Shown: positions 1-61,095 of the stretch, in pieces
Numbering within the stretch: the stretch's first letter is position 1
How the letters are laid out: every line of letters starts with the position of its first letter
Assembly (NCBI RefSeq): GCF_005473905.2
Contig: NZ_CP061336.1
Span: forward strand, 1,666,501-1,730,500
Direction of reading: 5' to 3'
Source of the DNA: Ruminiclostridium herbifermentans
GTDB lineage: Bacteria; Bacillota; Clostridia; Acetivibrionales; DSM-1351
DNA: 64,000 bases
The notes under the pieces: generated by a model
Seen by the model: the letters and a program-made list of their open reading frames with translations, nothing else
Told to the model about the DNA's origin: nothing
Database searches by the model: none
Made by a program: the position numbers and the translations under genes

Positions 1-60
1 ACTTTATGAAGCACTGCCAATGTAACAAATTTTTCTGGAATAGAAATCTTTTATTGAATT
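1..60 (+). repeat. Partial copy of dispersed structured element (family R1)
   Basis: This is the 3' part of a repeat unit cut by the window edge. The stretch reading TATGAAGCACTGCCAATGTAA matches the tail of the complete unit that follows, 146 bases downstream at position 151. The rest of the unit lies outside the window. Confidence 0.6.
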
Positions 61-73
61 CAAGCAATATAAC

Positions 74-200
74 GAGGCCTAAAAGAGGCATACGTTTCTA
101 AAAGTGGCAGGTACTGCTTGGCTTTATGGCTGTTAGAATATGTTTGCCTCTATGAAGCACCGCTAATATAATAAAGTTTTTCTGCAACCGGAAATTTATT
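74..200 (+). repeat. Dispersed structured element R1, near-complete copy
   Basis: The outer stem is GAGGCA (85-90; an extra GAGGCC sits at 74-79) pairing with TGCCTC (145-150). The inner hairpin GCAGGTACTGC (108-118) is followed by a TTGGCTTTATGG-like segment, and the 3' tail reads TATGAAGCACCGC. Related copies occur near 7.5, 7.75, 29.8-30.2 and 61.0 kb, all on the + strand. The layout suggests a transcribed RNA or an RNA-like mobile repeat; the function is unknown. Confidence 0.65.
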
Positions 201-221
201 GATTCTTGGTGTTTTAACAGT

Positions 222-262
222 GGGAACTCATTTCAATTTGGTGAAGTAGTTCCCGTTTTTGT
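222..262 (+). terminator. Intrinsic terminator after tandem R1 copies
   Basis: GGGAACT and AGTTCCC form a stem around an 18-base loop and are followed by GTTTTTGTG. It directly follows the tandem R1 units, so it could end a transcript that contains them. Bases 263-596 hold no gene that I can see, only AT-rich DNA. Confidence 0.6.
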
Positions 263-596
263 GTAATATTTTTATAATTTTTACATTTAATTATAATATT
301 ATAAATTTTTTAGTGATGGTTTAATCAAAAAATCATGATGACATACTTAAGATTACAATGATACTAAACATTACAAATAACTTGTAAGTCATAAAACTAA
401 CTTGTTTTGATGAAGTTATTTTGTTTTTCATTTGATATTGTTACTAAAGTGATATATCTAGGAATTACGCAGAATATTTAACTTCCAAATTCGAATAGTT
501 TGAAATCGTTAGTATGTAAACAGGATTTGAGTAGTTTGAGTTTGCTAATATATAAAAAACAGGCATAGAGTGCTTGATTAGAGGGATAATTAAAAT

Positions 597-1160
597 ATGG
601 GAACCTTAGAACTAATACTATTAGCAGTTGGACTTTCGATGGATGCGGCAGCGGTGTCTATATCCAATTCATTATGTATAAAAAAAATATCAATTAAAAA
701 TATTTTGCAGATGGCAGTGATGTTTGCATTGTTTCAAGCAATTATGCCATTAGCAGGATATTTTGCGGCAAGTGCATTTTCAGATGTAATTAATCAATTT
801 GATCATTGGATAGCTTTGATACTGTTATCAATTATTGGAGGAAAAATGCTGTACGAAGCAATAACTTCTGATGATAAACTGAATTGTGACTTAATAACAA
901 TGACATTAAAGCTTTTAGTGGTACAGGCAATTGCCACAAGTATAGATGCATTGGCCGTTGGCGTCAGCTTATCTGCACTCAATGTAAATATTTTTTACTC
1001 AATAAGCATTATAGGTGCTATTACATTTATTATTTGCTGTACTGCTGTTTTAATTGCCAAAAGGTTTGGAAGTTTATTGGGTAAAAGAGCGGGAGTTGTT
1101 GGTGGAATAATATTAATTGCTATAGGCATTAAAATATTCCTTGAGCATATGTTTTTTTAA
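597..1160 (+). CDS. mntP: Putative manganese efflux pump MntP
   Basis: A 187-residue, very hydrophobic protein with about six membrane segments. The first segment contains GLSMDAAAVSI and the second half repeats the pattern as ATSIDALAVGVSL. This internal duplication, with an aspartate in each half, is the hallmark of the MntP (DUF204) family, which exports Mn2+ across the cytoplasmic membrane. Length matches the family (about 185-190). The ATG follows AGAGGGATAATTAAAAT. I saw no yybP-ykoY riboswitch in the leader, although this RNA often controls mntP. It is followed closely by uvrB; co-transcription is possible but there is no functional link. Confidence 0.9.
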   Translation: MGTLELILLAVGLSMDAAAVSISNSLCIKKISIKNILQMAVMFALFQAIMPLAGYFAASAFSDVINQFDHWIALILLSIIGGKMLYEAITSDDKLNCDLITMTLKLLVVQAIATSIDALAVGVSLSALNVNIFYSISIIGAITFIICCTAVLIAKRFGSLLGKRAGVVGGIILIAIGIKIFLEHMFF

Positions 1161-1202
1161 ATAAAATGTAAAATAAAATTGTAAAAGTAGAACGAGGTTT
1201 TT

Positions 1203-3182
1203 ATGAATAAATTTGAAGTTATTTCTGATTATAGTCCAAAGGGCGATCAGCCGCAAGCAATTGAAAGGCTTAGCAAGGGGATACTTGATGGTATAAAGCA
1301 CCAAACACTGCTTGGAGTAACTGGTTCAGGAAAAACCTATACTATGGCAAAGGTCATTGAGAAGGTTCAAAAGCCTACTTTGATTATGGCTCATAACAAG
1401 ACTCTTGCTGCACAGCTTTGCAGTGAATTTAGAGAATTTTTTCCTAACAATGTAGTGGAGTACTTTGTAAGCTATTATGACTACTATCAACCAGAGGCTT
1501 ATATTGCAGCCACTGACACGTATATTGAAAAGGATTCATCTGTTAATGAAGAGATAGATAAATTGCGTCACTCTGCAACTGCTGCATTATTTGAACGAAG
1601 GGATGTTATTATCGTTGCCAGTGTTTCTTGCATATATGGCTTGGGTGATCCGGAAGATTACACAGATTTGATGATATCTCTTAGAGTTGGTATGCAAAAG
1701 GACAGGGATGAAGTTTTAAGAAAGCTTATTGACATACAGTATGAAAGAAATGAGATTGATTTTAGAAGAGGACGTTTTAGGGCAAGAGGAGATGTTTTAG
1801 AGATTTTTCCAGCTAATAGTTCTGAAATGGTGCTTAGAGTGGAGTTTTTTGGTGATGAAATAGAGAGAATAACAGAGGTGGATTATTTAACTGGTGAAAT
1901 TATTGGAACAAGGAATCATATTGCTATTTTTCCTGCATCTCACTATGCAACCACCAAGCCAAAAATGGATAGAGCTATTGTTACAATAGAAAAGGAATTA
2001 GAAGAGAGAATTGAGCAGTTTAAAATGGAGGGAAAACTCCTTGAGGCGCAAAGAATTGAACAAAGAACAAGATATGATTTAGAGATGATGTCTGAATTGG
2101 GCTTTTGTCAAGGAATAGAGAATTATTCAAGACATATTAGCGGAAGAGAACCTGGAAGTCCTCCGTTTACGCTGATGGATTACTTTCCTGATGATTATTT
2201 GCTTTTTATTGATGAATCCCATGTTACAGTTCCGCAGGTTGGGGCAATGTATAATGGTGACCGTTCCAGAAAAGAATCTCTAGTCAATTATGGTTTTAGA
2301 TTGCCATCTGCATTTGATAACAGACCACTTAAATTTTCTGAGTGGGAACAAAAGATAAATCAAGTTATATATGTAAGTGCAACTCCGGCTACTTACGAAA
2401 AAGAACATTCTACACAAATAGTTGAGCAGATTATAAGACCAACGGGACTAATAGATCCCGAGGTTATTGTTAGACCAGTTAAAGGACAGATTGACGATTT
2501 GATTGGTGAAATTAACTTAAGAGTAGAGAAAAATCAACGAGTTCTTGTTACAACTCTTACCAAAAAAATGGCTGAGGATTTAACTGAGTACATGAAGGGG
2601 CTTGATATAAGAGTAAAGTATATGCATTCAGATGTTGCTACATTTGAAAGAATGGAGATAATTAGAGACTTACGTCTTGGGGAGTTTGATGTTTTAGTAG
2701 GTATTAATTTATTAAGAGAGGGCTTAGATTTACCAGAAGTTACGCTTGTTGCAATATTAGATGCTGACAAGGAGGGCTTTTTGCGTTCTGAAACCTCACT
2801 AATTCAAACAATAGGAAGGGCTGCCAGAAATTCTGAGGGTAAGGTTATTATGTATGCCGACAGTATAACTGGTTCAATGCAAAGAGCAATAAGCGAAACT
2901 AATAGAAGACGTCAGATTCAGATGGATTATAACAAAAAGTATGGAATTGTTCCTACTACTGTTAAAAAGTCTGTACGTGACCTTATTGAAGCAACAAAGG
3001 CTGCAGAGGAGCAAGGGAATTATACTGTTGATGATAATAATGAAATTATGTCTGCAGAACAGATAGAAGAACTAATAGCAAAGCTTCAAAAGGAAATGAA
3101 ACAGGCTGCGAGAGATTTACAATTTGAGAAGGCAGCAGCTTTGAGGGATAAGATTGCTGAACTTAAGGAGAAAATGGAATGA
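1203..3182 (+). CDS. uvrB: Excinuclease ABC subunit B
   Basis: A 659-residue cytoplasmic DNA-repair helicase-like subunit. It receives damaged DNA from UvrA, opens it and loads UvrC for dual incision. Visible motifs are Walker A GVTGSGKT near residue 39, the beta-hairpin region [11 protein letters not shown] near 95, the [10 protein letters not shown] helicase motif near 396, the [10 protein letters not shown] and [14 protein letters not shown] motifs in the second RecA-like domain, the QTIGRAARN motif, and a C-terminal UVR segment ([13 protein letters not shown]) that contacts UvrC. The length is standard. The ATG follows AACGAGG. The stop overlaps the start of the next gene (ATGA), so the following LrgA-like gene is probably translationally coupled. 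uvrA and uvrC are not in the window. Confidence 0.98.
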
Positions 3183-3529
3183 AATTTCTTAGACAGTTTT
3201 TGATTATACTGATTATATGTGTGGTTGGAGAAGTTTTGAATAGAGTGGTGCATATACCGCTTCCAGGCAGTATCATTGGTATGATATTGCTTTTTATTTG
3301 CTTGCTATTTGGACTAATAAAGCTGGAAATGATAGAGGAGATTAGCAAATTCCTATTAGATCATTTAGCATTCTTTTTCATTCCTGCTGGGGTAGGATTA
3401 ATAGCATACGCTGGTATCATAAAGGAAAATTTGCTGCCCATATTAGTTATTTGCTTTGCCACTACATTTCTTGTAATGGTTATAACAGGGTGGACTGTGC
3501 AGGCTATTAAAGGAAAAATTAACAAATAA
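3179..3529 (+). CDS. LrgA/CidA family holin-like membrane protein
   Basis: A 116-residue protein with four predicted membrane helices and the family segment [15 protein letters not shown] near residue 26. LrgA/CidA proteins are holin-like and affect murein hydrolase activity and cell lysis; some members with LrgB handle small metabolites such as pyruvate. The start overlaps the uvrB stop by four bases. Its usual partner, LrgB, lies about 500 bp downstream instead of immediately next to it, with a small inverted-repeat insertion between them. I cannot tell LrgA from CidA by sequence alone. Confidence 0.85.
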
Positions 3530-3654
3530 TTTCATGAGTTGGCTAAATAGAAAAGCTTATGTGCAGGATGCATAATTTTTGTATTATTAAGTCATGAAAA
3601 CAGTATTCATGTATGATTAGAGCTAGTCAGCAAGTTCTAAATTTTTTGATGAAT

Positions 3655-3797
3655 GGGCTGTTGCAAAAAATATTTTCTTTATACTGATGTCTTATTACAT
3701 GAAATAGTACGCGAGCGAGCAATAGATATATATTGCACGGGAGTACTCTATTTAGCATTTTACTGTTGATTATATATTTCTTGTTTTGAAACAGTTC
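3655..3797. mobile_element. MITE-like inverted-repeat element (family M1, short form)
   Basis: The left end reads GGGCTGTTGCAAAA and the right end reads TTGTTTTGAAACAGTTC, an imperfect terminal inverted repeat. A nested inner arm reads AATAGTAC...GTACTCTATT. It has no coding capacity and is about 143 bp long. Both arms resemble those of the larger element at 42398-42728, so they are one family. It lies between lrgA and lrgB. No transposase of this family is in the window. Confidence 0.6.
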
Positions 3798-4025
3798 ATA
3801 GCACAATATGAACCATCGATGTTGAATGTGTGATACAGCAAAAAACTTAGCGTGAATTGTGCTAGTACCAATCACTTACTGATGGTGTTTTTTGGTATAA
3901 GCTAAGTTTGCTGAACTTTTATTTTAGAAGGCAAATAAAACAATAGAAAAGGAGTGGTAGCTAATTCCAGTACTTTCAAGGAATCCTTAGTTCCTTGTTA
4001 TTTTTATAAAAAGACTGGGTGAGGC

Positions 4026-4727
4026 ATGTTTATGAAGGAGATATTTGCTACACCAATTTTTGCATTGCTTATATCTATACTTGCTTATGAAATAGGCATT
4101 TTTATTAATAAAAAAACCAAGATAGCTTTCCTAAATCCTCTTATGATAGCTATAGCATTGGTAATTTGTACATTGATTGTACTGGATATTCCTCTTGAGG
4201 ATTATAAAAGCGGCGGGGATTTTATATCTATGTTTTTAACACCAGCCACTGTTATATTGGCTGTGCCTTTATACAAGAATATTAATTCTCTTAAAAAGGA
4301 TTATATTGCTATTTTATGCGGGGTTTTTGTGGGCAGCATTACGGCTATCTTTAGTGTTTGGGGGCTTGCAAAGGTATTCCAAATGCCAAAGGAATTATTA
4401 GCTTCCCTTATTCCAAAGTCCATAACTACACCCTTAGGGATAGAACTCTCAAATCAGCTAGAAGGAATACCCTCTGTGACAGTTGCAGCCATTATAATTA
4501 CAGGCATTGTGGGAGCTGTGTTTGCACAGTGGGTTTTAAAGGTATGCAGAATAACTGACAAAACTGCAAAGGGGTTAGCTATTGGGACTTCAGCACATGC
4601 CTTGGGTACAACCAAGGCAGTTGAAATGGGTGAAACTGAAGGTGCTATGAGTGGATTAGCTATTGGGCTCGCAGGTTTAGTTACTGTTATAGCTGCAACT
4701 ATACTATCAAAAATAGGTTTGTTTTAG
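4026..4727 (+). CDS. LrgB family membrane protein
   Basis: A 233-residue protein with about six or seven membrane segments. It shows LrgB family features: FLTPATVILAVPLYKN near residue 75, LIPKSITTPLGIELS near 127 and GTSAHALGTTKAVEMGE near 187. LrgB/CidB proteins work with LrgA/CidA at the membrane in autolysis or metabolite transport. GGGTGAGG lies only two bases before ATG 4026, and ATG 4032 is better spaced, so the start may be six bases later. The separation from lrgA by an insertion may give this gene its own promoter. Confidence 0.88.
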   Translation: MFMKEIFATPIFALLISILAYEIGIFINKKTKIAFLNPLMIAIALVICTLIVLDIPLEDYKSGGDFISMFLTPATVILAVPLYKNINSLKKDYIAILCGVFVGSITAIFSVWGLAKVFQMPKELLASLIPKSITTPLGIELSNQLEGIPSVTVAAIIITGIVGAVFAQWVLKVCRITDKTAKGLAIGTSAHALGTTKAVEMGETEGAMSGLAIGLAGLVTVIAATILSKIGLF

Positions 4728-4817
4728 CTATTAGTAGTAACTGTTATCTGATGTGGCAACATGTACAAATGGTTGGTTAAGTGAACAATAAAATTTGTGG
4801 AATTAAGGTGAAAAATA

Positions 4818-5471
4818 ATGAAGACCAAAGGCAAAATGAGTATACGATTGTTATGCTATTTTGGTGGAATGCTAATAATGACTCTAGGGGTGGCAGTATC
4901 TGTTAAATCAGTGCTTGGAGTATCCCCAATCAGTTCTGTTCCATATACTATAACAGTTGTATCTGGCATGGAACTAGGACTTACGACAACAATCTTTTCC
5001 ATTGTTGCAGCATTGCTTGAAATCCCCATTTTGCGAAAGAAATATAAAGCAATAAACCTTTTTCAAATTCCGGTCAGTATAGTATTCGGGTTATTCATGA
5101 CATTCTGTGTCAAGCTGGTTCAACAAATTCCCGATCCTTCAAGCTTTGTCATAAAACTCATTTTGGCACTTATAAGTACGGTCATCGTTGCAATTGGAGT
5201 ATTCCTATATGTCTCATCCGAATTAATACCTCTTCCGACAGAAGGAGTTTTGATAGCAATTACACAAGTCACGAGTTTAAGGTTTGCCACTCTGAAGGTC
5301 ATTGGTGATGTCACAATGGTTATAATATCTCTGGGTACCTGCCTGATTGTCTTGCATGCTTTCGGTAGCATTGGTATCGGAACAATCATCTCAGCAATAC
5401 TAGTGGGCAATGTGGTCAAGATACTGACAAAATACTTTAAATCTGCACTGAATAAAGCAATGGGTCTGTAG
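4818..5471 (+). CDS. YczE/YitT-like integral membrane protein
   Basis: A 217-residue protein with five or six hydrophobic segments and the N-terminal pattern LLCYFGGMLIMTLGVAVSV, followed by LGVSPISSVPYTI. This resembles the YczE (DUF6198) family of small bacterial membrane proteins with no settled function. AGGTG lies before the ATG. Base composition is a little less AT-rich than in the neighbours, which could mean acquisition, but this is weak. It has no obvious functional tie to lrgB or to the phosphoglucomutase downstream. Confidence 0.7.
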   Translation: MKTKGKMSIRLLCYFGGMLIMTLGVAVSVKSVLGVSPISSVPYTITVVSGMELGLTTTIFSIVAALLEIPILRKKYKAINLFQIPVSIVFGLFMTFCVKLVQQIPDPSSFVIKLILALISTVIVAIGVFLYVSSELIPLPTEGVLIAITQVTSLRFATLKVIGDVTMVIISLGTCLIVLHAFGSIGIGTIISAILVGNVVKILTKYFKSALNKAMGL

Positions 5472-5543
5472 ATTATAGCACAGGTGTTAATAATATATAT
5501 TTTTAAATATTAAATAATATATTATATTATGTAGATTGAATAA

Positions 5544-5571
5544 TTGAAATTGTAAAGTTTTATGATATACT
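5544..5571 (+). promoter_or_regulatory. Predicted sigma-A promoter of the phosphoglucomutase gene
   Basis: TTGAAA (5544-5549), a 16-base spacer and TATACT (5566-5571). Transcription would begin near 5578 and leave a leader of about 160 bases. Confidence 0.6.
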
Positions 5572-5622
5572 AGAAATCTATAGTATATTCTAAGCGGTAA
5601 AAATTGTTTTATTTTTGAGTAC

Positions 5623-5668
5623 CCACCACAGTAGTTTTGTGGTTAAAATAATGTTCACATTGTGGTGG
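5623..5668 (+). promoter_or_regulatory. Leader hairpin before phosphoglucomutase
   Basis: CCACCACA (5623-5630) is perfectly complementary to TGTGGTGG (5661-5668), with a small internal CCACA/TGTGG option. It lies in the leader of the downstream gene. No terminator U-tract follows. It could be an attenuator-like or stabilising hairpin; its function is unknown. Confidence 0.45.
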
Positions 5669-5741
5669 TCTGTTGATGAGCAGAGGCTCGGGGAAAATGT
5701 TAATTTATGTAAAAGATATTTTAGGAGGGTGCTAAAGAATT

Positions 5742-7472
5742 ATGGATAGTTTTGCAAAACTAAATTTTTGGTTAGAAAATGATTATTTTGATCAGGACAC
5801 GAAAGATGAACTTTTATCAATAAAAAACGATCCTAAAGAAGTAGAAGATAGATTCTACAAAAGCTTAGAGTTTGGAACTGGCGGTCTAAGAGGGATTATA
5901 GGTGCTGGTACAAACAGAATGAATATATACACTGTAAGAGTTGCGTCACAAGGTCTTGCAAACTATATTAACAAGCTTGGAAAACAAGACAAAGGTATTG
6001 TTATAGCGTATGACTCAAGATTTATGTCTCCTGAGTTTTCTTTAGAAGCAGCCAAGGTTTTCTGTGCAAATGGAATTAAAGCTTATTTATTTGATGAATT
6101 AAGACCTACTCCTCAGTTATCCTTTGCTGTAAGATACTTAAAAGCAGCAGCTGGTGTTGTTGTTACTGCAAGTCATAATCCAAAGCAATATAATGGCTAT
6201 AAGGTATATGGCGAGGATGGAGGGCAATTATCAATAGATGGCTCAAATGCAGTAATATCAGAAATCAATTCAATTGCTGATATAACAATGGTTAACATAA
6301 TTTCAAAGGAAGAAGCAATAGAAAAGGGTCTGCTGGAGATTATAGGAAGCAAAGTAGATGATGCATATATTGCTATGCTTAAAACTCTTTGTATTAATAG
6401 TGATGCAGCAGAAAAAGTAGGCGACAGCTTCAAAATAGTTTACACACCGTTACATGGATCTGGAAATAAACCAGTTAGAAGAATTCTTTCTGAAAATGGT
6501 TTTAAAAACGTGTTAGTTGTTAAGGAACAGGAACTTCCTGACTCTGAATTCTCAACAGTTAAATCACCTAATCCCGAAGAAAGGTCTGCTTTTGAACTAG
6601 CTATCAAGCTTGCTTCAGAGAACAATGTTGATTTAATAGTGGGTACTGACCCTGATAGTGACAGAGTTGGTGTGGTAGTAAGAAAGAATGATGGAGAATA
6701 TGCTACATTAACAGGCAATCAGACAGGCTGCTTATTGTTAGAGTATATGTTATCTGCCATGAAAGAAACAGGTAAGCTGCCTAGCAATGGTTTTGTTGTT
6801 AAAACTATTGTTACAACAGAACTTACAAGGGCTATTGCAAAGTATTATAATGTAGAACTTGTGGAAGTTCTTACAGGCTTCAAATTTATTGGCGAGCAAA
6901 TAAAGCTGAGAGATGAGCAAGGCAATCAGAAATATTTGTTTGGCTTTGAGGAAAGCTATGGCTACTTAGCAGGTACAGATGTTCGAGACAAGGATGCGGT
7001 TGTAGCTTCAATGTTAATAGCTGAAATGGCTGCATATTACAAGGCTAAGGGAATAACTCTATATGAGGCTTTAATAAACTTATTTGAGAAATATGGATAT
7101 TCACTTGAAGGAGTTAACTCATTTACTCTTGAGGGTAAAGATGGCTTAATGAAAATCAAAGCAGCAATGGCAACTATGCGCGAAGCAAAATATAAGAAGT
7201 TTGGTGCATTAAATGTAAAGGCTATCAGAGATTATGAAAAGTCCGAAAGATATATTATAGCAGATGGAACTACTGAAAAAATTAATTTACCTGTTTCTGA
7301 TGTTCTTTATTACGAAATGGAAGATGGTTCTTGGTTCTGCGTAAGACCATCAGGAACTGAACCTAAGATTAAGATATACTATGGTGTATCTGACAAAACA
7401 TTGGAATTGTCACAAGCAAGACTGGATACATTAAAGAGTAATGTATTAGATGTTATAAAGCCATTACTTTAA
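5742..7472 (+). CDS. pgcA: Phosphoglucomutase / phosphomannomutase
   Basis: A 576-residue alpha-D-phosphohexomutase that interconverts glucose-1-phosphate and glucose-6-phosphate (or the mannose equivalents) in the cytoplasm. Visible in order: EFGTGGLRGIIGAGTNRMN near residue 44, the phosphoserine loop VVVTASHNPKQYNGYKVY near 140, the metal loop GTDPDSDRVGV near 303, the sugar-binding GFEESYGYLAG near 405, and the phosphate-binding RPSGTEPKIKIYYG near the C terminus. Length fits the Gram-positive PgcA type. AGGAGGGTG precedes the ATG. It supports glycogen and wall precursor metabolism and joins the galactose-using genes elsewhere in the window only in a general way. Confidence 0.95.
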   Translation: MDSFAKLNFWLENDYFDQDTKDELLSIKNDPKEVEDRFYKSLEFGTGGLRGIIGAGTNRMNIYTVRVASQGLANYINKLGKQDKGIVIAYDSRFMSPEFSLEAAKVFCANGIKAYLFDELRPTPQLSFAVRYLKAAAGVVVTASHNPKQYNGYKVYGEDGGQLSIDGSNAVISEINSIADITMVNIISKEEAIEKGLLEIIGSKVDDAYIAMLKTLCINSDAAEKVGDSFKIVYTPLHGSGNKPVRRILSENGFKNVLVVKEQELPDSEFSTVKSPNPEERSAFELAIKLASENNVDLIVGTDPDSDRVGVVVRKNDGEYATLTGNQTGCLLLEYMLSAMKETGKLPSNGFVVKTIVTTELTRAIAKYYNVELVEVLTGFKFIGEQIKLRDEQGNQKYLFGFEESYGYLAGTDVRDKDAVVASMLIAEMAAYYKAKGITLYEALINLFEKYGYSLEGVNSFTLEGKDGLMKIKAAMATMREAKYKKFGALNVKAIRDYEKSERYIIADGTTEKINLPVSDVLYYEMEDGSWFCVRPSGTEPKIKIYYGVSDKTLELSQARLDTLKSNVLDVIKPLL

Positions 7473-7499
7473 AATTCAGTTGGTTGAATTCACTATATT

Positions 7500-7620
7500 G
7501 AGGCAAGAAGATTTCTATTATTTCTATAAGTGAGTGGCAGGCACTGCTTTGAATTTAAGAAGTTTAGGATATTTTTTGCCTCAATGAAATGGCGCTCAAT
7601 GTAATAGTTCGAAACAAAGT
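7500..7620 (+). repeat. Dispersed structured element R1
   Basis: Outer stem GAGGCA (7500-7505) with TGCCTC (7577-7582), an inner GGCAGGCACTGC hairpin, and the tail AATGAAATGGCGCT. Compared with the 85-150 copy, the inner loop differs (GCA for GTA) while the pairing is kept. Confidence 0.65.
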
Positions 7621-7736
7621 ATGTACCAACTAGGTGCATTTTCGAGCCAAAAGGTCACAAGTAGTTTTTTGAAGGTGCATATTTTTCTGCATCGAAAAAT
7701 TTTGTATTTATTCTATGTATTGTTGTGAGGCAAATA

Positions 7737-7850
7737 GATGTCTCAAATTCTATAAGTGTGGGGCAGGTGCTGCCATGGACTTAAGGCAATGAGGATATCT
7801 TTTGCCTCAATGAAATAGCACTGATTCTAATGATGTTTACACAACAGGTA
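7737..7850 (+). repeat. Dispersed structured element R1
   Basis: Outer stem GAGGCA (7737-7742) with TGCCTC (7803-7808), an inner GGCAGGTGCTGCC hairpin, and the tail AATGAAATAGCACT. It is the second of a pair about 227 bases apart, between pgcA and the oppositely oriented phosphoesterase. Confidence 0.65.
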
Positions 7851-7906
7851 AAGGTATAGCAAAAAATATTGTGATTTTCTTTGCAATAATTTTGATATGC
7901 CTTTAC
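7848..7906. terminator. Long AT-rich hairpin after R1 pair
   Basis: GTAAAGG (7848-7854) pairs with CCTTTAC (7900-7906), with further pairing inside (CAAAAATATTG with CAATAATTTTG). It sits after the R1 copies and before the convergent phosphoesterase gene, where a transcription end is expected. It has no clean U-tract. Confidence 0.4.
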
Positions 7907-8039
7907 TTGATATATTTGCGAGTTGCGATTATTAGTGGATTGCTAAGAAAATTTAGTTATATAAGAATGGTTATACTAATTTATTGAATTAATTTGCTAG
8001 TTAGTATAAGCTATGCTTTCAAAATAGTAAAAGTTATTC

Positions 8040-8852: not shown

Positions 8853-8994
8853 ATATAAAATTGCTCCTATAAAAATAATAAAATATGGTAAGAATATATA
8901 TGGTTAATATTTTAAAATAATTTATAGTTAAAAGTATACATAAAAAAAATACATTTGTAAAATATTAAAAAAGTTTGAAAATAGTAAAATTATG

Positions 8995-10432: not shown

Positions 10433-10515
<83 letters not shown>

Positions 10516-19401: not shown

Positions 19402-19484
<83 letters not shown>

Positions 19485-29698: not shown

Positions 29699-29789
29699 TA
29701 TGATATTTAATTGTTGTGATAATTTTGTTATATCAAGGAAAGGGAAAGTCCTATGCTTCTTTAAATGAATGGATATAGTCTTTATTTTC

Positions 29790-29880
29790 AGGTGGTGAGG
29801 ATTCTATAGCCTCGGTGAAATACTTGATGTAATATCGCAAAAGTGATGAAATTAATCTGCAAAGGAGAAATTTAATTTTA
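29790..29880 (+). repeat. Dispersed structured element R1, truncated copy
   Basis: Only the 3' half is clear: GCCTCGGTGAAATACTTGAT (29809-29828), then an AAAAGTGATGAAATTAATCTGCAA segment. The tail repeats 173 bases later almost exactly. First of three tandem copies between the regulator and the kinase genes. Confidence 0.6.
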
Positions 29881-29904
29881 TATATTTAAATTAGATATTA
29901 AAAC

Positions 29905-30050
29905 GAGGTAAGAAAGAGTTACATTCTTCTACAACAAAGTGGCGGGTGTTGCTTTAGTTTTCAGGACTTGAAATATATTTTGCCTCGGTGAAATACTTGA
30001 TGTAATATCGCAAAAGTGATGAAATTAATTTGCAATGGAGAAATTTATAT
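29905..30050 (+). repeat. Dispersed structured element R1
   Basis: GAGGTA (29905-29910) pairs with TGCCTC (29981-29986) with one G-U pair. The inner hairpin region reads GGCGGGTGTTGC. The tail matches the previous copy and includes TGATGAAATTAATTTGCAATGG. Second of three tandem units with a period of about 170. Confidence 0.65.
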
Positions 30051-30070
30051 TTAAATTTATATATTGATAT

Positions 30071-30215
30071 GAGGCATGAAAAAGTTCCAGTACTTCCATA
30101 AGTATGAGGGTACTGCTTTGGTTTTAAGATGGGTGAGTTATTTATTTATATCCTCAATGCACTACAGATGATATGCTTGATGTAACATCTGTACTGTGAT
30201 GAAATTAATCTGCAA
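30071..30215 (+). repeat. Dispersed structured element R1
   Basis: GAGGCA (30071-30076) faces TCCTC (30151-30155). The GGGTACTGCTTTGGTTTTAAG segment is the conserved inner part. The tail includes TGATGAAATTAATCTGCAATGG. Third tandem unit, ending about 80 bases before the operator of the kinase. Confidence 0.6.
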
Positions 30216-30297
30216 TGGAAAAATTTCATACTGATTATAGGTATCAAAAACTATACGAGAAGTGAAGTGTTTTACTTCTCAAATATTTTAGAACAAA

Positions 30298-44680: not shown

Positions 44681-44683
44681 AAT

Positions 44684-54685: not shown

Positions 54686-54836
54686 GATACACACTGCTCT
54701 TGTTAATGCTTAATTGTAACTTATTGATAATTTCATCAAAAAACGAAAAAAGCTGTTTAATTTACATAAGAATTAGTTTATTATTAGATTGTTAATAATA
54801 TATAAATTAAATACAAATGTACAGGAGGATAAAGCT

Positions 54837-55895
54837 TTGAGTATTACAAAGAAATATTTTGGCACATTACCAGATGGTACAAACGTGGATATCATTACTT
54901 TGAAGAATTCTAAAAATATGTCTGTAGATATTATTAATTTTGGTGGAATTGTAGTTTCAATTGGTGTTCCTGATAAGAGTGGTAACATAGCTGATGTAGC
55001 ATTGGGGTACACACAGTTGGATAAATATATCGATAACGATGGTTACATTGGTGCATTAGTAGGAAGGCACGCAAATAGAATTGAGGATGCAAGGTTTGAA
55101 TTAAATGGTAAAGTTTATGAATTATTAAAAAACGATGGTGAAAATCATCTTCATGGAGGTGCGGTAGGTCTCCATAATGTTGTTTGGAATGCAGAAATAT
55201 CAGAACAGAATGGAAATGAAAAATTAGTTCTTACACATACAAGTCCAGATGGTGAAGAAAATTACCCTGGAAAGTTAGATGTTACAGTTGAATACTCATT
55301 GTCAGAGAAAAATGAACTGAAAATAGATTATACTGCTGTTTCAGATAAAGATACTGTAGTTAATTTAACAAATCATGCATATTTCAATCTCGCTGGACAT
55401 AATTCTGGAGATGCAACACAGCATCAGCTTTTTATAAATGCTGACTACTTTACTCCTGTAGATGATGAATGTATACCAATTGGAGAAATTAAAAGCGTTA
55501 AAGGAACTGTGATGGATTTCACAAAAATGAAGTGTATCGCTGATGATATAAATAGCACAGATGAGCAAATTGTAAATGGAAAAGGCTATGACCATAACTG
55601 GGTTCTTAACACAAAGGGAGATGTTAATAAATTAGCAGCTGAACTATATGACCCTAAAAGCGGAAGGGCTATGGAAGTGTATACTACAAAACCAGGAATT
55701 CAATTTTATTCGGGTAATCATTTAAGTGAAAAGTTAGTAGGTAAGGATGATGCGGTTTATAATTCGAGAACTGGACTTTGTCTTGAGACTCAGTATTTTC
55801 CTAATGCGATGAAACATAAGAACTTTCCATCACCTATTTTAAGAGCTGGTGAAAAGTATCATCACATAACAATATACAAGTTTACAAATAAATAA
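54837..55895 (+). CDS. galM: Aldose 1-epimerase
   Basis: A 352-residue GalM-type mutarotase. Motifs: INFGGIVVSIGVPDKSG near residue 35, GRHANRIEDARFELNGK near 77, LHGGAVGLHNVVWN near 105, LTNHAYFNLAGH near 175 (catalytic His), ETQYFPNAMKHKNFPSP near 320 (catalytic Glu is in the C-terminal part). It interconverts the anomers of galactose or glucose. TTG 54837 follows ACAGGAGGATAAAGC and is a better start than the ATG upstream. It could serve galactose released by the alpha-galactosidase elsewhere in the window. Confidence 0.93.
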   Translation: MSITKKYFGTLPDGTNVDIITLKNSKNMSVDIINFGGIVVSIGVPDKSGNIADVALGYTQLDKYIDNDGYIGALVGRHANRIEDARFELNGKVYELLKNDGENHLHGGAVGLHNVVWNAEISEQNGNEKLVLTHTSPDGEENYPGKLDVTVEYSLSEKNELKIDYTAVSDKDTVVNLTNHAYFNLAGHNSGDATQHQLFINADYFTPVDDECIPIGEIKSVKGTVMDFTKMKCIADDINSTDEQIVNGKGYDHNWVLNTKGDVNKLAAELYDPKSGRAMEVYTTKPGIQFYSGNHLSEKLVGKDDAVYNSRTGLCLETQYFPNAMKHKNFPSPILRAGEKYHHITIYKFTNK

Positions 55896-55937
55896 TCAAT
55901 TTTCGTAAATATAATTTTATTGTTACGATAAACAAAA

Positions 55938-55963
55938 ACCCCTGAACTCTTACAGGGGCTTTT
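55938..55963. terminator. Bidirectional terminator between galM and the zinc-ribbon gene
   Basis: CCCCTG pairs with CAGGGG, flanked by AAAA before and GCTTTTTG after. It serves galM on the + strand and, in reverse, the convergent zinc-ribbon gene. Confidence 0.8.
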
Positions 55964-56015
55964 TGATGTCTGTCTGATTAATCAAAGCAACGTCAGTATA
56001 TAATTGAGTTGCATA

Positions 56016-56192
56016 TTATCTTTGACTGTATCCGCTATTGAAGTTTTTCTGTGAAGCCTTCTTAGCTTTTCTGCAATCAGGACATCTTGCAGGTTCATTT
56101 GTAAATCCTTTTTCAGCGTAAAACTGCTGTTCGCCAACAGTAAAGGTAAATGTTGCACTGCAATCTCTACAAGTAAGAGTTTTATCTTCCAT
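56016..56192 (-). CDS. Small zinc-ribbon protein
   Basis: A 58-residue protein with two CxxC pairs: LTCRDCSATF near residue 6 and ARCPDCRKAKK near 35. This is the small zinc-ribbon family (zf-trcl, PF13451-like) found in many Gram-positive bacteria, sometimes as the N-terminal part of cold-shock-type proteins. The role is unknown; binding of one zinc ion is expected. ATG 56192 follows AGGAGGTAG, and an in-frame ATG 33 bases upstream lacks one. Confidence 0.85.
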   Translation of the reverse strand: MEDKTLTCRDCSATFTFTVGEQQFYAEKGFTNEPARCPDCRKAKKASQKNFNSGYSQR

Positions 56193-56378
56193 GAGACTAC
56201 CTCCTAAAATTTTGTTGCTGAGCATATAAAACCTTATACATTACGGGATGAAAAAGGAGATGATATCAGAATAAGAAATTATAAAGCTTAGCAATTTAAT
56301 TATACTATCGAGAATTGTAAAAATCAAGAAATTTTGAAAAGCTTGGTATTAAAAAAAATAAAAAAAATAAAATTTCTA

Positions 56379-56407
56379 TTGACAAAAATGATATTGTGCC
56401 GTAAAAT
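56379..56407 (+). promoter_or_regulatory. Promoter of tRNA-His
   Basis: TTGACA (56379-56384), a 17-base spacer and TAAAAT (56402-56407), about 42 bases before the mature tRNA. Confidence 0.75.
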
Positions 56408-56448
56408 ATCAAATGTGCCTTGCGAGACAACATTTCAGAGGCGTATAT

Positions 56449-56526
56449 GGTGGGTATAGTTCAGCTGGTTAGAGCGCCAGATTGTGGTTCTGGATGTCGT
56501 GGGTTCGAATCCCACTATCCACCCCA
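56449..56526 (+). tRNA. tRNA-His (anticodon GUG)
   Basis: Begins with the extra G typical of tRNA-His, then acceptor GTGGGTA pairing with TATCCAC. The anticodon stem-loop is CCAGA-TTGTGGT-TCTGG and the T-arm contains GGGTTCGAATCCC. The CCA is encoded. It is a single-gene unit with a terminator right after it. Confidence 0.95.
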
Positions 56527-56562
56527 AAAAATAGTATAAACTTTTGTTTATACTATTTTTTT
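56527..56562 (+). terminator. Terminator after tRNA-His
   Basis: AAAATAGTATAAAC pairs with GTTTATACTATTTT, followed by further T. A 12-bp stem with a four-base loop. Between here and 57019 there is AT-rich DNA; a GTGAAAAACTACACAATA...TATTGTGTGAAC inverted repeat lies near 56898-56940. Confidence 0.85.
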
Positions 56563-57019
56563 ATGCAACAATAGCCCAAATAAATTCAATTCTAATCCAA
56601 TATCTTTTTAATTTATATCTAACAATTTTACTAAAATTATGAAATATAAATGAAACATTTTTCTTTTTTTTGCGTCTATAGTTGTTATAATAGACTTAAC
56701 ATATTAACGATAATTGTTGGGATGAATCACAACATATAAACAAAGCTATTATACAACAATACCGAAATTTATGGAGTAGAGTATCGCCTCAAAAAGCATT
56801 TTGTGAAAAAATTGTACATTTATGAACTGGAAACCTCCAATATTAATGTAGCTACTGTAGTGATTGAGGAGTGATGATTGAAGTACATAAGTGAAAAACT
56901 ACACAATATTAATTACATGACAAGTATTGTGTGAACAGAATGTTTCTTTGAGATGTAACAGCAATTGATTTTGCAAAATAGCATACCTAATTTATGTACA
57001 CAGAGAGGAAGGATCGCTT

Positions 57020-57985
57020 ATGGTTAGAAAATTATTAATATGGTCACTAATATTAGTTGTATCAATTTCAGCAGTTGGATGCGGTAATAAGTCCACTGAA
57101 TCCGTTGCAGCTTATAATGAGCAATATTCATTAAGTGAACCAAATGGTGCAGTTGAAATTTATGATATGGAATCTACAGAATCAGTTTCAGAAACAAAAT
57201 CAATAGCTGCAAAAGAAGACGAAAGTAGTCAAAGCTTAGCTAATATGACCAGTGGGCAGAAAATTATTTTTTCGGGGCAAGTAAATTTAGAAACTTTAGA
57301 TTTCGAAAAAACTAAAACTGAGTTAAGCCAATACATAGAATCTATAGGTGGTTTTATTCAAAATTCATCAATTCGGGGCGGAAGATTAGGATATGCAGGT
57401 TTAAAAAGTGCAGAATATGTATTTAGAATCCCTAAGGCTAAATACAATCAGTCACTTATTGACTTAAAGAAATTCGGAACTGTAGTATTAGAAGAATCAA
57501 GTGGAGAAGATGTAACAGAACAATATTTTGATACCGAAGCACGATTAAAGTCATTAAAAATACGACAGGAACGTTTACATGCACTTCTTAGCAAGGCTGA
57601 AAAGATGGAGGATATATTAAAAATAGAAAAAGAACTCCAAGAAGTATTATATGCAATAGAAAATTACACAGGAACCCTCAGAAAATGGGACTCACTTATA
57701 GAATACTCAACATTGAAGGTTAATATATCTGAGGTTGAGCAAATAAAGCCAGAGACTCCTAAAGAAAAAGACGGATTCTTTGAAAGAGTAGCTTATAGCT
57801 TTAATAACAGTTTAATAGGTTTGGGAGAATTTTTACAGGATTTTGTAGTAGCATTAGCAGCTGCATTGCCAATACTTATACCTATAGGAGCAATTTGTTA
57901 TTTAATATTTAAATTTATAAGAAAGATAAAACGTACATTGGAGAAAAAGGAAGTTAGTGAGAAAGAAGATAAAAAAGAGGAATAA
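57020..57985 (+). CDS. DUF4349 lipoprotein
   Basis: A 321-residue envelope protein. The lipobox is SAVGC near residue 21 and the mature N terminus is an acidic linker (to about 80). The DUF4349 domain covers about 83-305, with IIFSGQVNLETLDFEKTK, RLGYAGLKSAEYVFRIP, EESSGEDVTEQYFDTEARLK and a helical hairpin (LHALLSKAEKMEDILKIEKE). A C-terminal membrane segment (near 280-300) and a lysine/glutamate tail (ERTLEKKEVSEKEDKKEE-like) end the protein. Function unknown; members are thought to act in the envelope. GAGAGGAAGG precedes the ATG. Confidence 0.85.
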   Translation: MVRKLLIWSLILVVSISAVGCGNKSTESVAAYNEQYSLSEPNGAVEIYDMESTESVSETKSIAAKEDESSQSLANMTSGQKIIFSGQVNLETLDFEKTKTELSQYIESIGGFIQNSSIRGGRLGYAGLKSAEYVFRIPKAKYNQSLIDLKKFGTVVLEESSGEDVTEQYFDTEARLKSLKIRQERLHALLSKAEKMEDILKIEKELQEVLYAIENYTGTLRKWDSLIEYSTLKVNISEVEQIKPETPKEKDGFFERVAYSFNNSLIGLGEFLQDFVVALAAALPILIPIGAICYLIFKFIRKIKRTLEKKEVSEKEDKKEE

Positions 57986-58072
57986 CAACTAGAGAGCCGA
58001 TATGATATGTAATTTGTGTTGAATAGACGGTAAATATTATGCAAGCAGTAGTAATATATTACGAATAACTAA

Positions 58073-58163
58073 GGGCTGTTTCTATATGTATTAACCCATA
58101 TATTGTTTCTAAGTATCAGTAAATATTATATGGATTAAGATTATTAGGAACAGCCTTTTTATT
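58073..58163. repeat. Short inverted-repeat element, possibly M1-like
   Basis: GGGCTGTTTC (58073-58082) faces GGAACAGCC (58148-58156), followed by TTTTTATTATT. The end sequence resembles the M1 ends at 3655 and 42398, but the arms inside differ. It may be a terminator with a long loop instead. It lies 90 bases after the DUF4349 gene. Confidence 0.45.
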
Positions 58164-58317
58164 ATTTAAGATTTCTGAAATTATAACATACAAAGTAACA
58201 TCATTAAAAATATATATTATTCATATTTATTGTGAGCAGTTTTAGGAATGTTTTTTAGGATTGTATTGTTTTAAGCAAGCTTTACTAACCAACTAATTCA
58301 TGCAATTATTTCTAATC

Positions 58318-58369
58318 CAACTTTCCATTGATAAGGTAAGCACCTACGATTTTTCAACTGGGGAAGTTG
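58318..58369. repeat. Inverted-repeat element family R2
   Basis: CAACTTTCC (58318-58326) pairs with GGAAGTTG (58362-58369) around ATTGATAAGGTAAGCACCTACG. It matches the copies at 33241, 40519 and 63132. The nearby tail reads TTTTTCAACTGGG. Noncoding. Confidence 0.6.
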
Positions 58370-58514
58370 AATATATTAAGAAAAAACTGGAATCAAAAAT
58401 ATATATGAAGTAGAAATAGAAGCTGACAATATTAAGTTGCATAAAAAGGGGAAATATGTAAATTGATTTATTGTTATAAAATAAAAAAGCCTTTAATCAA
58501 AAGATTAAAGGTTT

Positions 58515-58590
58515 TGGTGACCCATCGCAGATTCGAACTGCGGACACCTTGATTAAAAGTCAAGTGCTCTGCCAACTGAGCTAATGGGTC
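58515..58590 (-). tRNA. tRNA-Lys (anticodon UUU)
   Basis: On the minus strand GACCCAT...ATGGGTC forms the acceptor stem, the anticodon stem-loop is CTTGA-CTTTTAA-TCAAG and CCA is encoded at the 3' end. It lies seven bases after tRNA-Gln in the same transcript. Confidence 0.95.
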
Positions 58591-58597
58591 AAATGGC

Positions 58598-58674
58598 TGG
58601 CTGGGATGGCTGGACTCGAACCAACGCAATGCCAGAATCAAAATCTGGTGCCTTACCGACTTGGCGACATCCCA
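58598..58674 (-). tRNA. tRNA-Gln (anticodon UUG)
   Basis: On the minus strand TGGGATG...CATCCCA is the acceptor stem. The anticodon stem-loop is CCAGA-TTTTGAT-TCTGG and CCA is encoded. It is the first tRNA of a two-gene transcript that includes tRNA-Lys. The open + strand frame over this region is spurious. Confidence 0.95.
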
Positions 58675-58692
58675 ACGTCAAGCGCAAGACCT

Positions 58693-58721
58693 ATTATAAA
58701 GAGGTTTGCACTTTTTGTCAA
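58693..58721 (-). promoter_or_regulatory. Consensus promoter of tRNA-Gln and tRNA-Lys
   Basis: On the minus strand TTGACA (58721-58716), a 17-base spacer and TATAAT (58698-58693). The upstream AT-rich tract is a possible UP element. The remaining 58722-59200 holds no gene I can support. Confidence 0.85.
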
Positions 58722-59205
58722 GCAAAAAAACAAAAAAAATTAAATATTTTTTTAAAATTTTTTAAAAAGCAAGAAAACTTTCTGTATCCCCTTATAATTT
58801 CAAATTAAGATAAGGCTGTAAGCTTACTAATATCAGTAATTCTAGGCTCTTTTATATTATATTTAACACTTTGTATTAATTATTTTATGAACTTTTCAGA
58901 TAAATATACTGGCTTTCTGGTACTTCTGTAAAAACTTATCTAAATGGTTAATCCAAATATATTTGTTGAATTAGTAGTGGCTCATAATAACTAATTATAC
59001 AGCCTTACCACATTTAGCATCCATGCTTTATGCTTCGTTCTTTATTACTTCGTTGGTAGACATTAAGTATTCTTCGCCTATAAATTCAAGCAAAAATCTT
59101 TAACCAAGTAACCCATTTATATAAGTTGTACTCCTGTACCAGTAATAGCAATAAAAAGTTTACCTGCGAATTAAGTTTTATTATGTATTTTGTGAGAAAG
59201 TTGAG

Positions 59206-59253
59206 GTGATAAAAATAAAAGCAGGCATTTGCCTTATGCAAAATTAGCCTGCT
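59206..59253 (-). terminator. Terminator of prfC
   Basis: On the minus strand AGCAGGC (59253-59247) pairs with GCCTGCT (59226-59220), followed by TTTATTTTTATC. It begins 10 bases after the prfC stop. Confidence 0.85.
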
Positions 59254-59262
59254 AACATGATT

Positions 59263-60876
59263 TTATAATTTAAAGTCTTGAGTTGCTATGTCGATTAGCT
59301 CTAAACCTTTATTTCTTTCTTCAGTCATTCTGATTGACCATTCATTTTCAAATAGTATTGAGTTTCTGCCAAGCTTGTCTTCAACAATTATTGCTGTACT
59401 AGGAAGGTTAAGCTTTCGTGGATCCAAGCCTTCATTTTTAATCCATCTTGCATGTCTAAAAGGTAAGTTTTGAACTCTAAGCTGCACACCGTACTCATTT
59501 TTTAATCGGTATTCTAATACTTCAAACTGAAGTGCACCTACTACACCAACAATCAATGCTTCAATACCAATGTCAATTTGCTTGAATACCTGAATAGCTC
59601 CTTCTTCAGAGAGCTGATTAATACCCTTAATAAACTGCTTTCTCTTCATTGTATCAGCAGGAGTAATTCTTGAGAAAAATTCTGCAGGGAATATAGGAAT
59701 ACCTTTAAACTTAATATTGTCATTACCCTCAAATAAGGTATCTCCAATATTGAATATTCCAGGATCAAATAAACCAATGATATCACCAGCATAGGCTTCT
59801 TCAACAATAGTTCTTTCTTGTGCCATAAACTGCTGCGGTTGTGAAAGACGAACTTCCTTTCCTGCATTTACATGCTTTACTGACATTCCTTTTGTAAATT
59901 TACCGGAGCAAATCCTTAAAAAGGCAAGTCTATCTCTATGAGTTGGATTCATATTTGCCTGTATTTTGAAGATAAAACCAGAAAATTTGTCACTTTCGGG
60001 GTCAACATCACCTCCGATTGCCTCAACTACTCCTGGTGAAGGTGCAAGTTCTAGAAATTCCTCCAAAAATGGTTGTACTCCAAAATTAGTCATAGCACTT
60101 CCAAAAAACATAGGAGTAAGCTCTCCATTACGAACTTTCTTTTTGTCAAATTCGTCACCAGCCATATCCAATAGTTCAATATCTTCACATAACTTATCGT
60201 GATAATGACTTCCAAGCAAATCAGCAAATACGGGATCATCTACTTTTCCAACCTGAGATGAAACTTGGGTTTGTCCATGCTCACCACCGGTAAAAAGCTC
60301 AATTTGCTTTAATTTACGATTGTATACTCCTTTAAAATCTCCATCAATACCAATTGGCCAATTCATAGGATATGAACGAATACCAAGTACTCTTTCAATT
60401 TCTTCCATTAACTCAAAGGGGTCTTTACTTGCACGATCCATTTTGTTTACAAATGTGAAAATTGGAATACCTCTGAGTTTACATACATGGAAAAGCTTTA
60501 TTGTCTGTGCCTCAATACCTTTTGCACCATCTATAAGCATAACAGCACTATCAGCGGCTACAAGAGTTCTATAGGTGTCTTCACTGAAGTCTTGATGGCC
60601 TGGTGTATCTAGTATATTGATGCAATAATTATTGTATTCAAATTGCATAACACTAGAGGTAACAGAAATTCCTCTTTGCTTTTCAATTTCCATCCAATCT
60701 GATACGGCGAATTTGTTTGCTTTTCTTGATTTTACAGAACCAGCCATTCTGATGGCTCCCCCATAAAGCAAAAGTTTTTCTGTTAATGTAGTTTTTCCTG
60801 CATCTGGGTGAGAAATAATAGCAAACGTTTTTCTTCGTGATACTTCTTTTTTAATTTCAGCTTTTAAATCTGGCAT
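59263..60876 (-). CDS. prfC: Peptide chain release factor 3
   Basis: A 537-residue translational GTPase that removes RF1 and RF2 from the ribosome after peptide release. G1 is FAIISHPDAGKTTLTEKLL near residue 18, the switch region has QRGISVTSSVMQFEY, G3 ILDTPGHQDFSEDTYRTL and G4 FVNKMDRASKDP. The C-terminal portion has FKFSGFIFKIQANMNPTHRDR-like and EYGVQLRVQNLPF segments typical of RF3. ATG 60876 follows GAGAGG with eight-base spacing and is preferred over a GTG 33 bases upstream. It is divergent from the nucleoside kinase gene. Confidence 0.95.
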   Translation of the reverse strand: MPDLKAEIKKEVSRRKTFAIISHPDAGKTTLTEKLLLYGGAIRMAGSVKSRKANKFAVSDWMEIEKQRGISVTSSVMQFEYNNYCINILDTPGHQDFSEDTYRTLVAADSAVMLIDGAKGIEAQTIKLFHVCKLRGIPIFTFVNKMDRASKDPFELMEEIERVLGIRSYPMNWPIGIDGDFKGVYNRKLKQIELFTGGEHGQTQVSSQVGKVDDPVFADLLGSHYHDKLCEDIELLDMAGDEFDKKKVRNGELTPMFFGSAMTNFGVQPFLEEFLELAPSPGVVEAIGGDVDPESDKFSGFIFKIQANMNPTHRDRLAFLRICSGKFTKGMSVKHVNAGKEVRLSQPQQFMAQERTIVEEAYAGDIIGLFDPGIFNIGDTLFEGNDNIKFKGIPIFPAEFFSRITPADTMKRKQFIKGINQLSEEGAIQVFKQIDIGIEALIVGVVGALQFEVLEYRLKNEYGVQLRVQNLPFRHARWIKNEGLDPRKLNLPSTAIIVEDKLGRNSILFENEWSIRMTEERNKGLELIDIATQDFKL

Positions 60877-61014
60877 TTTATTTAACCTCTCCATCAACAC
60901 TTTTTCCACGTTTCATTGTATATTATAGCCAAATTACTGTCAAATACAAATAAGAATAAACATTTGATTCATCAATCAAAACGAGAATATAATAAGTGAG
61001 ATAAAATCTTACAT

Positions 61015-61095
61015 TAATAAGAACAGATGCTGCTCTGGTTTTTAGGTGGTAAAAAAATATCTACTGCCTCTTTGAAACCACTCTGAATCAATTGA
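61015..61095 (+). repeat. Dispersed structured element R1, partial copy
   Basis: CAGATGCTGCTCTGGTTTTTAGG, then an ATATCTACTGCCTC (61057-61070) and TTTGAAACCACTCTGAAT tail. The conserved inner hairpin and TGCCTC arm are present; the 5' GAGGCA arm is not clear. Between the divergent prfC and nucleoside kinase genes. Confidence 0.5.

What the first reader, a model, noticed from the sequence alone, without database searches (positions are those of the whole stretch)
1..61095. Unrecognised structured repeat (R1) in tandem and single copies, always on the + strand
About eight copies (1-60, 74-200, 7500-7620, 7737-7850, 29790-29880, 29905-30050, 30071-30215, 61015-61095) share an outer GAGGCA/TGCCTC stem, a GCAG-loop-CTGC hairpin, a TTTGGTTTTAAG-like single-stranded segment and a TATGAA/AATGAAA tail. 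Bases in the stems change while pairing is kept (loop GTA, GCA or GTG; GAGGTA with a G-U pair). Units sit in tandem with spacings of about 146-227 bases, only between genes. A transcribed RNA class, a riboswitch-like pair or an RNA-derived mobile repeat would all fit. I cannot rule out that it is already catalogued.
Basis: partly seen in the sequence, partly recalled or inferred. Interest (0 to 1): 0.75.

Follow-up and report, generated by a model that had tools for sequence, protein, structure and literature searches.

The report
Small jumping repeat with two hairpins
The eight copies belong to a family of short, gene-less, two-hairpin DNA repeats that inserts itself at the word ATAA, mostly between genes, in many clostridia and some Selenomonas-like bacteria; it behaves like a small parasitic mobile element rather than a new regulatory RNA, and the enzyme that moves it was not found.

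Summary
In detail: all eight copies are real, and one covariance model finds these eight in the window. They belong to a dispersed family with at least 132 copies (E<=0.01) in this Ruminiclostridium genome. The true unit is about 150-160 nt: two hairpin domains between ATAA(CG) and (CG)TTATAA. No Rfam 15 match. "Always on the + strand" reflects the window's place in one replichore: genome-wide, 88 of 108 copy clusters point with replication.

Best explanation: a small non-autonomous mobile repeat (BOX-, RUP- or MITE-like). A Selenomonas-like genome holds 22 near-identical young copies. In one empty site (flanks 94-98% identical) the occupied version has the element plus one more TATAA. Both junctions read ATAA in 29 of 29 young copies. 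Tandem copies usually share one ATAA. In the window's genome copies are intergenic, old and decaying.

Stem covariation is real, but G.U is hardly preferred over A.C, young copies ignore gene orientation, and orthologous copies decay. An RNA class is therefore not supported, though expression was not testable. The mobilising enzyme is unknown: the genome with the youngest copies has only a fragment of a Y1 transposase, and shows no significant replication bias.

The parts
1..73 (+). 3' part of a copy that begins before the window (genome 1666423-1666573); shares ATAAC with the next copy
   Evidence: sequence
69..218 (+). best-preserved copy in the window: ATAACGAGGC ... TTGCCTC ... hairpin ... 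GGTGTTTTAA
   Evidence: (115.8 bits), fold (RNA parameters, z -3.15)
7495..7726 (+). long-form copy: second domain carries an extra module (TTCGAAACAAAGTATGTACCAACTAGGTGCATTTTCGAG...); core match 7495-7653
   Evidence: 56.7 bits; module found next to 11 of the sampled own-genome copies; end at 7726 read by eye from the sequence
7722..7890 (+). copy with divergent second domain
   Evidence: (48 bits)
29730..29876 (+). decayed copy, first of three in a row
   Evidence: (29.8 bits, weak)
29900..30049 (+). second copy of the array (GAGGT/GCCTC stem with G-U)
   Evidence: (41 bits)
30067..30250 (+). third copy of the array
   Evidence: (51.7 bits)
60989..61129 (+). decayed single copy between divergent genes
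   Evidence: (29.1 bits, weak)

Best explanation
The repeat is a non-autonomous mobile DNA element, a small interspersed repeat of the BOX/RUP/MITE kind. It has constant ends (5' AACGAGGC, 3' GCGTTATAA), a first hairpin domain whose inside is freely variable (full form, bare hairpin, or other inserts), a fixed linker (GCCTCGTTGAAACGC) and a second hairpin domain. A transposase or recombinase supplied in trans by another element (not identified) is inferred to recognise the folded ends and insert the unit at an ATAA word; one extra ATAA results, so a new copy can land at the end of an old one and head-to-tail arrays can form. Shown: mobility, target word, absence of a variable target duplication in young copies, arrays sharing the word, structure. 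Inferred: action in trans, recognition of the hairpins. In the window's genome the family is an old, decaying burst; in a Selenomonas-like genome it moved recently. Why old Ruminiclostridium copies point with replication (88 of 108 clusters) is open: biased insertion through the lagging-strand template, or selective retention.
For: Empty sites: G042 carries an operon segment without the insertion that is otherwise 98% and 94% identical to the occupied one; empty ATATT-TATAA-AGAAGG, occupied ATATT-TATAA-CGAGGC..GGCGT-TATAA-AGAAGG. L244 versus G001 L320 is also clean (flanks 94% and 81%). L246 versus G001/G008 and L231 versus G008 fit insertion after TAT. Young copies: 38 matches in G331 (150 of 414 candidates scored); 29 of them were read, 22 near-identical: ATAA at both junctions in 29 of 29; the base before it is T 25, A 3, C 1 on the left (my recount by eye, three copies being printed one base off) and T on the right each time (the right end was located by its GCGTTAT). 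Flank conservation stops at these words in 108 own clusters. Tandem neighbours share ATAAC in 27 of 35 gaps. Modular interior. Horizontal spread: an identical 101-nt copy in an identical 400-base context in three genomes from two families. Age: median 26% divergence from consensus over 115 own copies.
Against: No autonomous partner with these ends was found. Two empty sites (L075, L077) lie in AT-rich sequence and do not fit to the base; some 'empty' sites are remnants of decayed copies (L249, G009 copy of L075). Orientation bias is not significant in the genome with the youngest copies (17 of 29 by contig skew, my count; 18 to 11 by local skew), so insertion bias is not shown. Of 29 young insertions, three lie inside ORFs of at least 100 aa, so intergenic position is not absolute. 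Stem covariation in 115 own copies (346 double changes against 157 shuffled) exceeds what plain neutral decay of one master would give.
Confidence: 0.8

Rival explanations
1. It is moved by a Y1 (HUH) transposase as single-stranded DNA, like IS200/IS605: hairpins at both ends, insertion 3' of a fixed short word without duplication, preference for the lagging-strand template.
For: Fixed 5' word and no variable target duplication, hairpins at both ends, 88 of 108 own clusters and 36 of 47 loci in other genomes oriented with the G-rich leading strand; in divergent or convergent gene pairs 29 to 4. PMC5371812 (passages read) states that orientation of IS200/IS605 members follows replication.
Against: G331, with the youngest copies, has only a Y1 fragment (46 model positions, one stop) and G041, with 29 copies, has no match. 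29 Y1 loci, one from each of 29 relatives and out of many more Y1 matches, plus the own genome's, show no such ends. G331 shows no significant orientation bias. PMC5371812 also says other IS families show such bias. Guide words were not identified.
Confidence: 0.25
2. It is a conventional MITE cut from an unknown DDE-transposase element, with very short terminal inverted repeats (TTATAACG/CGTTATAA) and a duplicated ATAA.
For: Ends are inverted repeats of about 8 bp; empty sites hold the word once, occupied sites twice.
Against: The base before ATAA varies on the left (A or C in 4 of 29 young copies) but not on the right, so a 3-bp TAT or 5-bp TATAA duplication is excluded for those copies; only a fixed ATAA duplication remains possible. 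Inverted repeats are shorter than usual (recalled). A DDE MITE does not predict covarying internal hairpins.
Confidence: 0.3
3. It is a structured RNA (regulatory or small RNA) that also spreads, i.e. the fold is selected at the RNA level.
For: Covariation: 109 double-change cells against 34 shuffled in 58 copies from other genomes, 346 against 157 in 115 own copies, slid controls far lower (alignments fitted to the model, so leaning towards it). Strong fold of a young copy (z -6.39). Own copies mostly sense to neighbouring genes (56 same/same against 16 opposite/opposite).
Against: G.U to A.C at stem positions is 379:326 (shuffled 459:409) and 98:56 (shuffled 114:79); a working RNA usually tolerates G.U far better (recalled). 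Young copies are neutral to gene orientation (6 same/same, 5 opposite/opposite, 16 mixed). The first domain is replaceable by a bare hairpin. Orthologous copies lose pairs. No Rfam match.
Confidence: 0.08

Closest known systems
BOX, RUP and SPRITE repeats of Streptococcus pneumoniae (PMC3049150, passages read)
   Same: Typically under 200 bp, no transposase, fold as stem-loops, BOX and RUP over 100 copies per genome, modular interior in BOX, described there as parasitic non-autonomous elements from a past burst.
   Different: No sequence comparison was made; different ends as far as the passages show; leading-strand share there 61-63%, here 81% of clusters; host range here spans several clostridial families and a Selenomonas-like family.
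REP/REPIN elements and TnpA-REP (PMC6006769, passages read; PMC3116915, start of abstract seen)
   Same: Intergenic hairpin DNA repeats, many copies, singly or in clusters.
   Different: REPs are 21-65 nt hairpins with a GT[AG]G foot and inverted pairs; here about 100-230 nt, two different hairpins in fixed order, ATAA word, head-to-tail arrays; no Y1 gene with these ends in the loci checked.
IS200/IS605 insertion sequences (PMC6006769 and PMC5371812, passages read)
   Same: Insertion beside a fixed short word, end hairpins, orientation following replication in Ruminiclostridium.
   Different: No transposase gene, no copy with these ends around a Y1 gene in the loci checked, no intact Y1 in the genome with the youngest copies.
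Bacterial MITEs (PMC10969869 review, start of abstract and one passage seen)
   Same: Small, non-autonomous, dispersed, inverted-repeat ends.
   Different: Inverted repeats only about 8 bp, no parent element found, strict ATAA.

Membership tests
Small interspersed non-autonomous mobile repeat (BOX/RUP/MITE-like) | Dispersed, many copies, intergenic, no gene | tested here: met
   143 copies at E<=1, 132 at E<=0.01, out of 150 scored of 2526 candidates; intergenic in 105 of 105 clusters judged; in G331 26 of 29
Small interspersed non-autonomous mobile repeat (BOX/RUP/MITE-like) | Mobility shown by empty sites or young copies | tested here: met
MITE of a DDE element | Terminal inverted repeats shared with an autonomous element | tested here: inconclusive
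   Ends match over about 8 bp only; no autonomous element found in the fetched loci, but only a minority of each genome was read
MITE of a DDE element | Target-site duplication | tested here: inconclusive
   3- or 5-bp duplication excluded in 4 of 29 young copies, fixed ATAA duplication possible
IS200/IS605-type single-strand element | Insertion 3' of a fixed short word, no variable duplication | tested here: met
IS200/IS605-type single-strand element | Y1 transposase with these ends, or intact in the active host | tested here: not met
   29 loci; G331: fragment only
IS200/IS605-type single-strand element | Orientation follows replication | tested here: inconclusive
   Met in the window's genome (88 of 108) and in loci of other genomes (36 of 47), not significant in G331 (17 of 29)
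Known Rfam RNA family | Match at the family's gathering score | tested here: not met
   Only tRNAs in the window; lax search of 1-300 and 7480-7920 gives chance-level hits
Structured RNA class | Covariation with G.U tolerance | tested here: inconclusive
   Covariation yes, G.U preference hardly
Structured RNA class | Expression as a defined transcript | not testable with these tools
   No RNA-seq available

The most novel reading that the evidence does not exclude
A class of hairpin-recognised mobile DNA that inserts with near-absolute preference at ATAA, without a variable target duplication, and is moved by an enzyme that is neither a resident Y1 transposase nor the transposase of any element sharing its ends: a new single-strand or hairpin-based mobilisation route in Clostridia and Negativicutes.
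Probability: 0.2. Interest if true: 0.7.

Novelty: new member of a known kind. Interest (0 to 1): 0.5.

Why it matters
It explains a large set of apparently structured intergenic repeats in clostridial genomes that could otherwise enter ncRNA lists, and defines a repeat family (ends, target word, structure, young and old hosts) in bacteria used for cellulose degradation. The Selenomonas-like genome with 22 near-identical copies but no intact Y1 gene makes the question 'what moves BOX-like repeats?' directly testable.

Tried and rejected
Rfam: no known family. Y1 transposase as resident mobiliser: the own genome has one Y1 gene with different ends; 29 Y1 loci from 29 relatives scanned, no such ends; G331 only a fragment. 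Autonomous copy: lone 5' ends and six partial matches in G331 (about 0.3 Mb in 18 stretches plus 3-kb loci), of which those printed enclose no gene. Phage vector: no match in 50,697 phage records; no exact match to three patterns in IMG/VR, which would miss diverged copies. Plasmids: one record, Selenomonas pSRC1. E. coli genomes: none. A first anchor-based covariation test was badly anchored and gave no excess in own copies; it is not used. A first end-triplet count was too noisy and is not used. Unconstrained RNAalifold on the MAFFT alignment found only the outer stem. 5S rRNA expansion segments (PMC7812874, passages) were looked at and gave no link.

Rows dropped: one search counts 105 of 108 clusters (three lacked a flanking ORF); one search uses 56 of 59 matches, 53 loci, 47 with clear skew, and these loci were picked by an exact core pattern; one search uses 115 copies and 11 adjacent pairs; one search reads 29 of 38 G331 matches (30 had a locus; one at a contig end left out). 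One of the 108 clusters is an antisense match to a palindromic copy (1565421). Searches use strict filters and score at most 50 and 10 candidates per genome, so absences there are weak.
Full report
What is there. The window is positions 1666501-1730500 of a 4.82-Mb single-contig genome. A model built from nine copies finds 143 matches at E<=1 in the genome, 132 at E<=0.01, out of 150 scored of 2526 first-look candidates, so this is a lower bound.

Anatomy. Consensus of own copies: ATAACGAGGCAAGAAAATGTCCCCCACTTCTATAAGTGGCGGGTACCGCTTTGGTTTTCAGGCGGTGAGAATATCTCCTGCCTCGTTGAAACGCCGCTGATGTAATGAAATTTTTCTACAAT(CG)AAAAATTTCATTTTGAATCTAGGCGTTATAA; the printed majority consensus reads ...CAATGAAAAA..., and the bracketed CG is put in by me from single copies. 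Domain 1: outer stem CGAGGC/GCCTCG with an inner hairpin (CCACTTCTATAAGTGG) and a weaker third helix. Domain 2: stem AACGCC/GGCGTT and a long A+T-rich hairpin. In other genomes domain 1 can shrink to a bare hairpin or be replaced, while the ends, the linker and domain 2 persist. In the sampled part of the window's genome 11 copies, one of them at 7495-7726, carry an extra module of roughly 80 nt in domain 2. The design is modular.

Structure. On 115 own copies 78.3% of cells form standard pairs against 71.4% shuffled, with 346 double changes against 157; on 58 copies from other genomes 91.7% against 84.2% and 109 against 34; slid controls fall to 39-54%. These alignments were fitted to the model and lean towards it; unconstrained folding of a sequence-only alignment found just the outer stem. 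The clearest pairs are in the domain-2 stem (C-G 36 and U-A 28; G-C 42 and A-U 25); the copies with the two states form only weak subgroups elsewhere (1% excess identity, 1 of 300 permutations as high). G.U is barely favoured over A.C (379:326 and 98:56, against 459:409 and 114:79 shuffled), which is unlike a working RNA family (general knowledge) and suits hairpins that matter as DNA.

Mobility. Flank conservation over 108 clusters stops at TATAAC on the left and TTATAA on the right. Empty sites: in G042 a copy of the same operon segment, 98% and 94% identical on the two sides, lacks the insertion and has one TATAA where the occupied one has two; G004 L244 against G001 is also clean; L246 and L231 place the break after TAT; L075 and L077 are ambiguous in A+T-rich sequence; L249 and one relative of L075 are decayed remnants, not empty sites. 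A phylum-wide draw of 299 genomes, under strict filters, gave 5 with matches: the own genome and four of one family, f53. One of these, G331, has 38 matches; of 29 read, 22 are near-identical. The closest named record is a Selenomonas ruminantium plasmid (79.6% over 95%), so f53 is probably Selenomonas-like (inference). In the 29 copies both junctions are ATAA; in four the base before it on the left is A or C while the right side has T, so a 3- or 5-bp duplication is excluded there and only a fixed ATAA could be duplicated (recounted by eye). Three of the 29 lie inside ORFs of at least 100 aa.

Arrays. Tandem neighbours share the word in 27 of 35 gaps, as expected if copies insert at the ATAA of another copy's end. 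Likeness of neighbours is mixed: of 11 adjacent pairs, 5 rank among the ten closest of 114, 2 rank 15th and 23rd, and 4 rank 77th or worse. So both fresh insertion beside a copy and local duplication seem to build arrays; the array near 2468133 (85-98% identity) is a clear duplication.

Distribution. 29 of 60 genomes of the order-wide relatives set, the own genome included, have matches. Named hosts of the core include Sinanaerobacter, Acetivibrio mesophilus and several clostridial MAGs. A 101-nt short form is identical in an identical 400-base context in three genomes from two families, so that stretch moved horizontally. No phage record matched and no exact pattern match was found in IMG/VR.

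Orientation. GC skew flips near 2.4 Mb. 88 of 108 clusters point with replication (P 2e-11). In divergent or convergent gene pairs, where gene sense is neutral, 29 of 33 do. In other genomes 36 of 47 loci have the element on the G-rich strand. In G331, however, 17 of 29 do (my count), not significant, and gene orientation is neutral. So either insertion is biased in some hosts or old copies are retained selectively; this is not settled.

Mechanism. Shown: it moves, it targets ATAA, its ends and two hairpins are kept. Inferred: an enzyme acting in trans recognises the ends. A Y1 transposase would explain much of this, but the genome with the youngest copies has only a Y1 fragment, G041 with 29 copies has no match, and the 29 Y1 loci checked have other ends. 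I therefore file it as a small non-autonomous mobile repeat and leave the enzyme open. Near-perfect palindromes in domain 2 are seen in three copies of three genomes (L047, L248, L403), which may mean template switching within hairpins during replication (inference).

Known relatives. In what they work like, the pneumococcal BOX repeats are closest: modular, mostly under 200 bp, folded, mildly leading-strand biased (PMC3049150, passages). No paper describing this family appeared in the listings of nine searches of the open-licence library; subscription journals and ISfinder could not be searched, so an existing name is possible.

Noticed in passing
window 7600-7700 and ten further own-genome copies: An extra module (TCGAAAATAAAGTATGTACGAACAAGGTGCATTTTCGAG plus a CCACAAGTGG-like hairpin) sits inside domain 2; it may be a nested second repeat family.
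   Followed up: partly
window 10433-10515 and 19402-19484: Two identical tRNA-Leu genes (anticodon tag) 9 kb apart, followed by 146 identical bases but with no identity directly upstream.
   Followed up: no
L047, L248, L403: Three copies in three genomes have a second domain turned into a near-perfect palindrome, as if one arm had been rewritten from the other.
   Followed up: no
G000:2468128-2468616: A three-copy array whose units are 85-98% identical, the clearest recent duplication among the 115 own copies compared.
   Followed up: no
G042:3465611, G012:607439, G045:135612 (L070-L072): A small operon segment, identical over 400 bases in three genomes from two families, carries the short form right after a stop codon; the upstream protein looks thioredoxin-like by eye (not searched).
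   Followed up: partly
G008:C69:6346-6435 (L239): A short copy lies beside what looks like a 5S rRNA gene (recognised by eye); three rRNA loci of other species printed lack it, the rest were not examined.
   Followed up: partly
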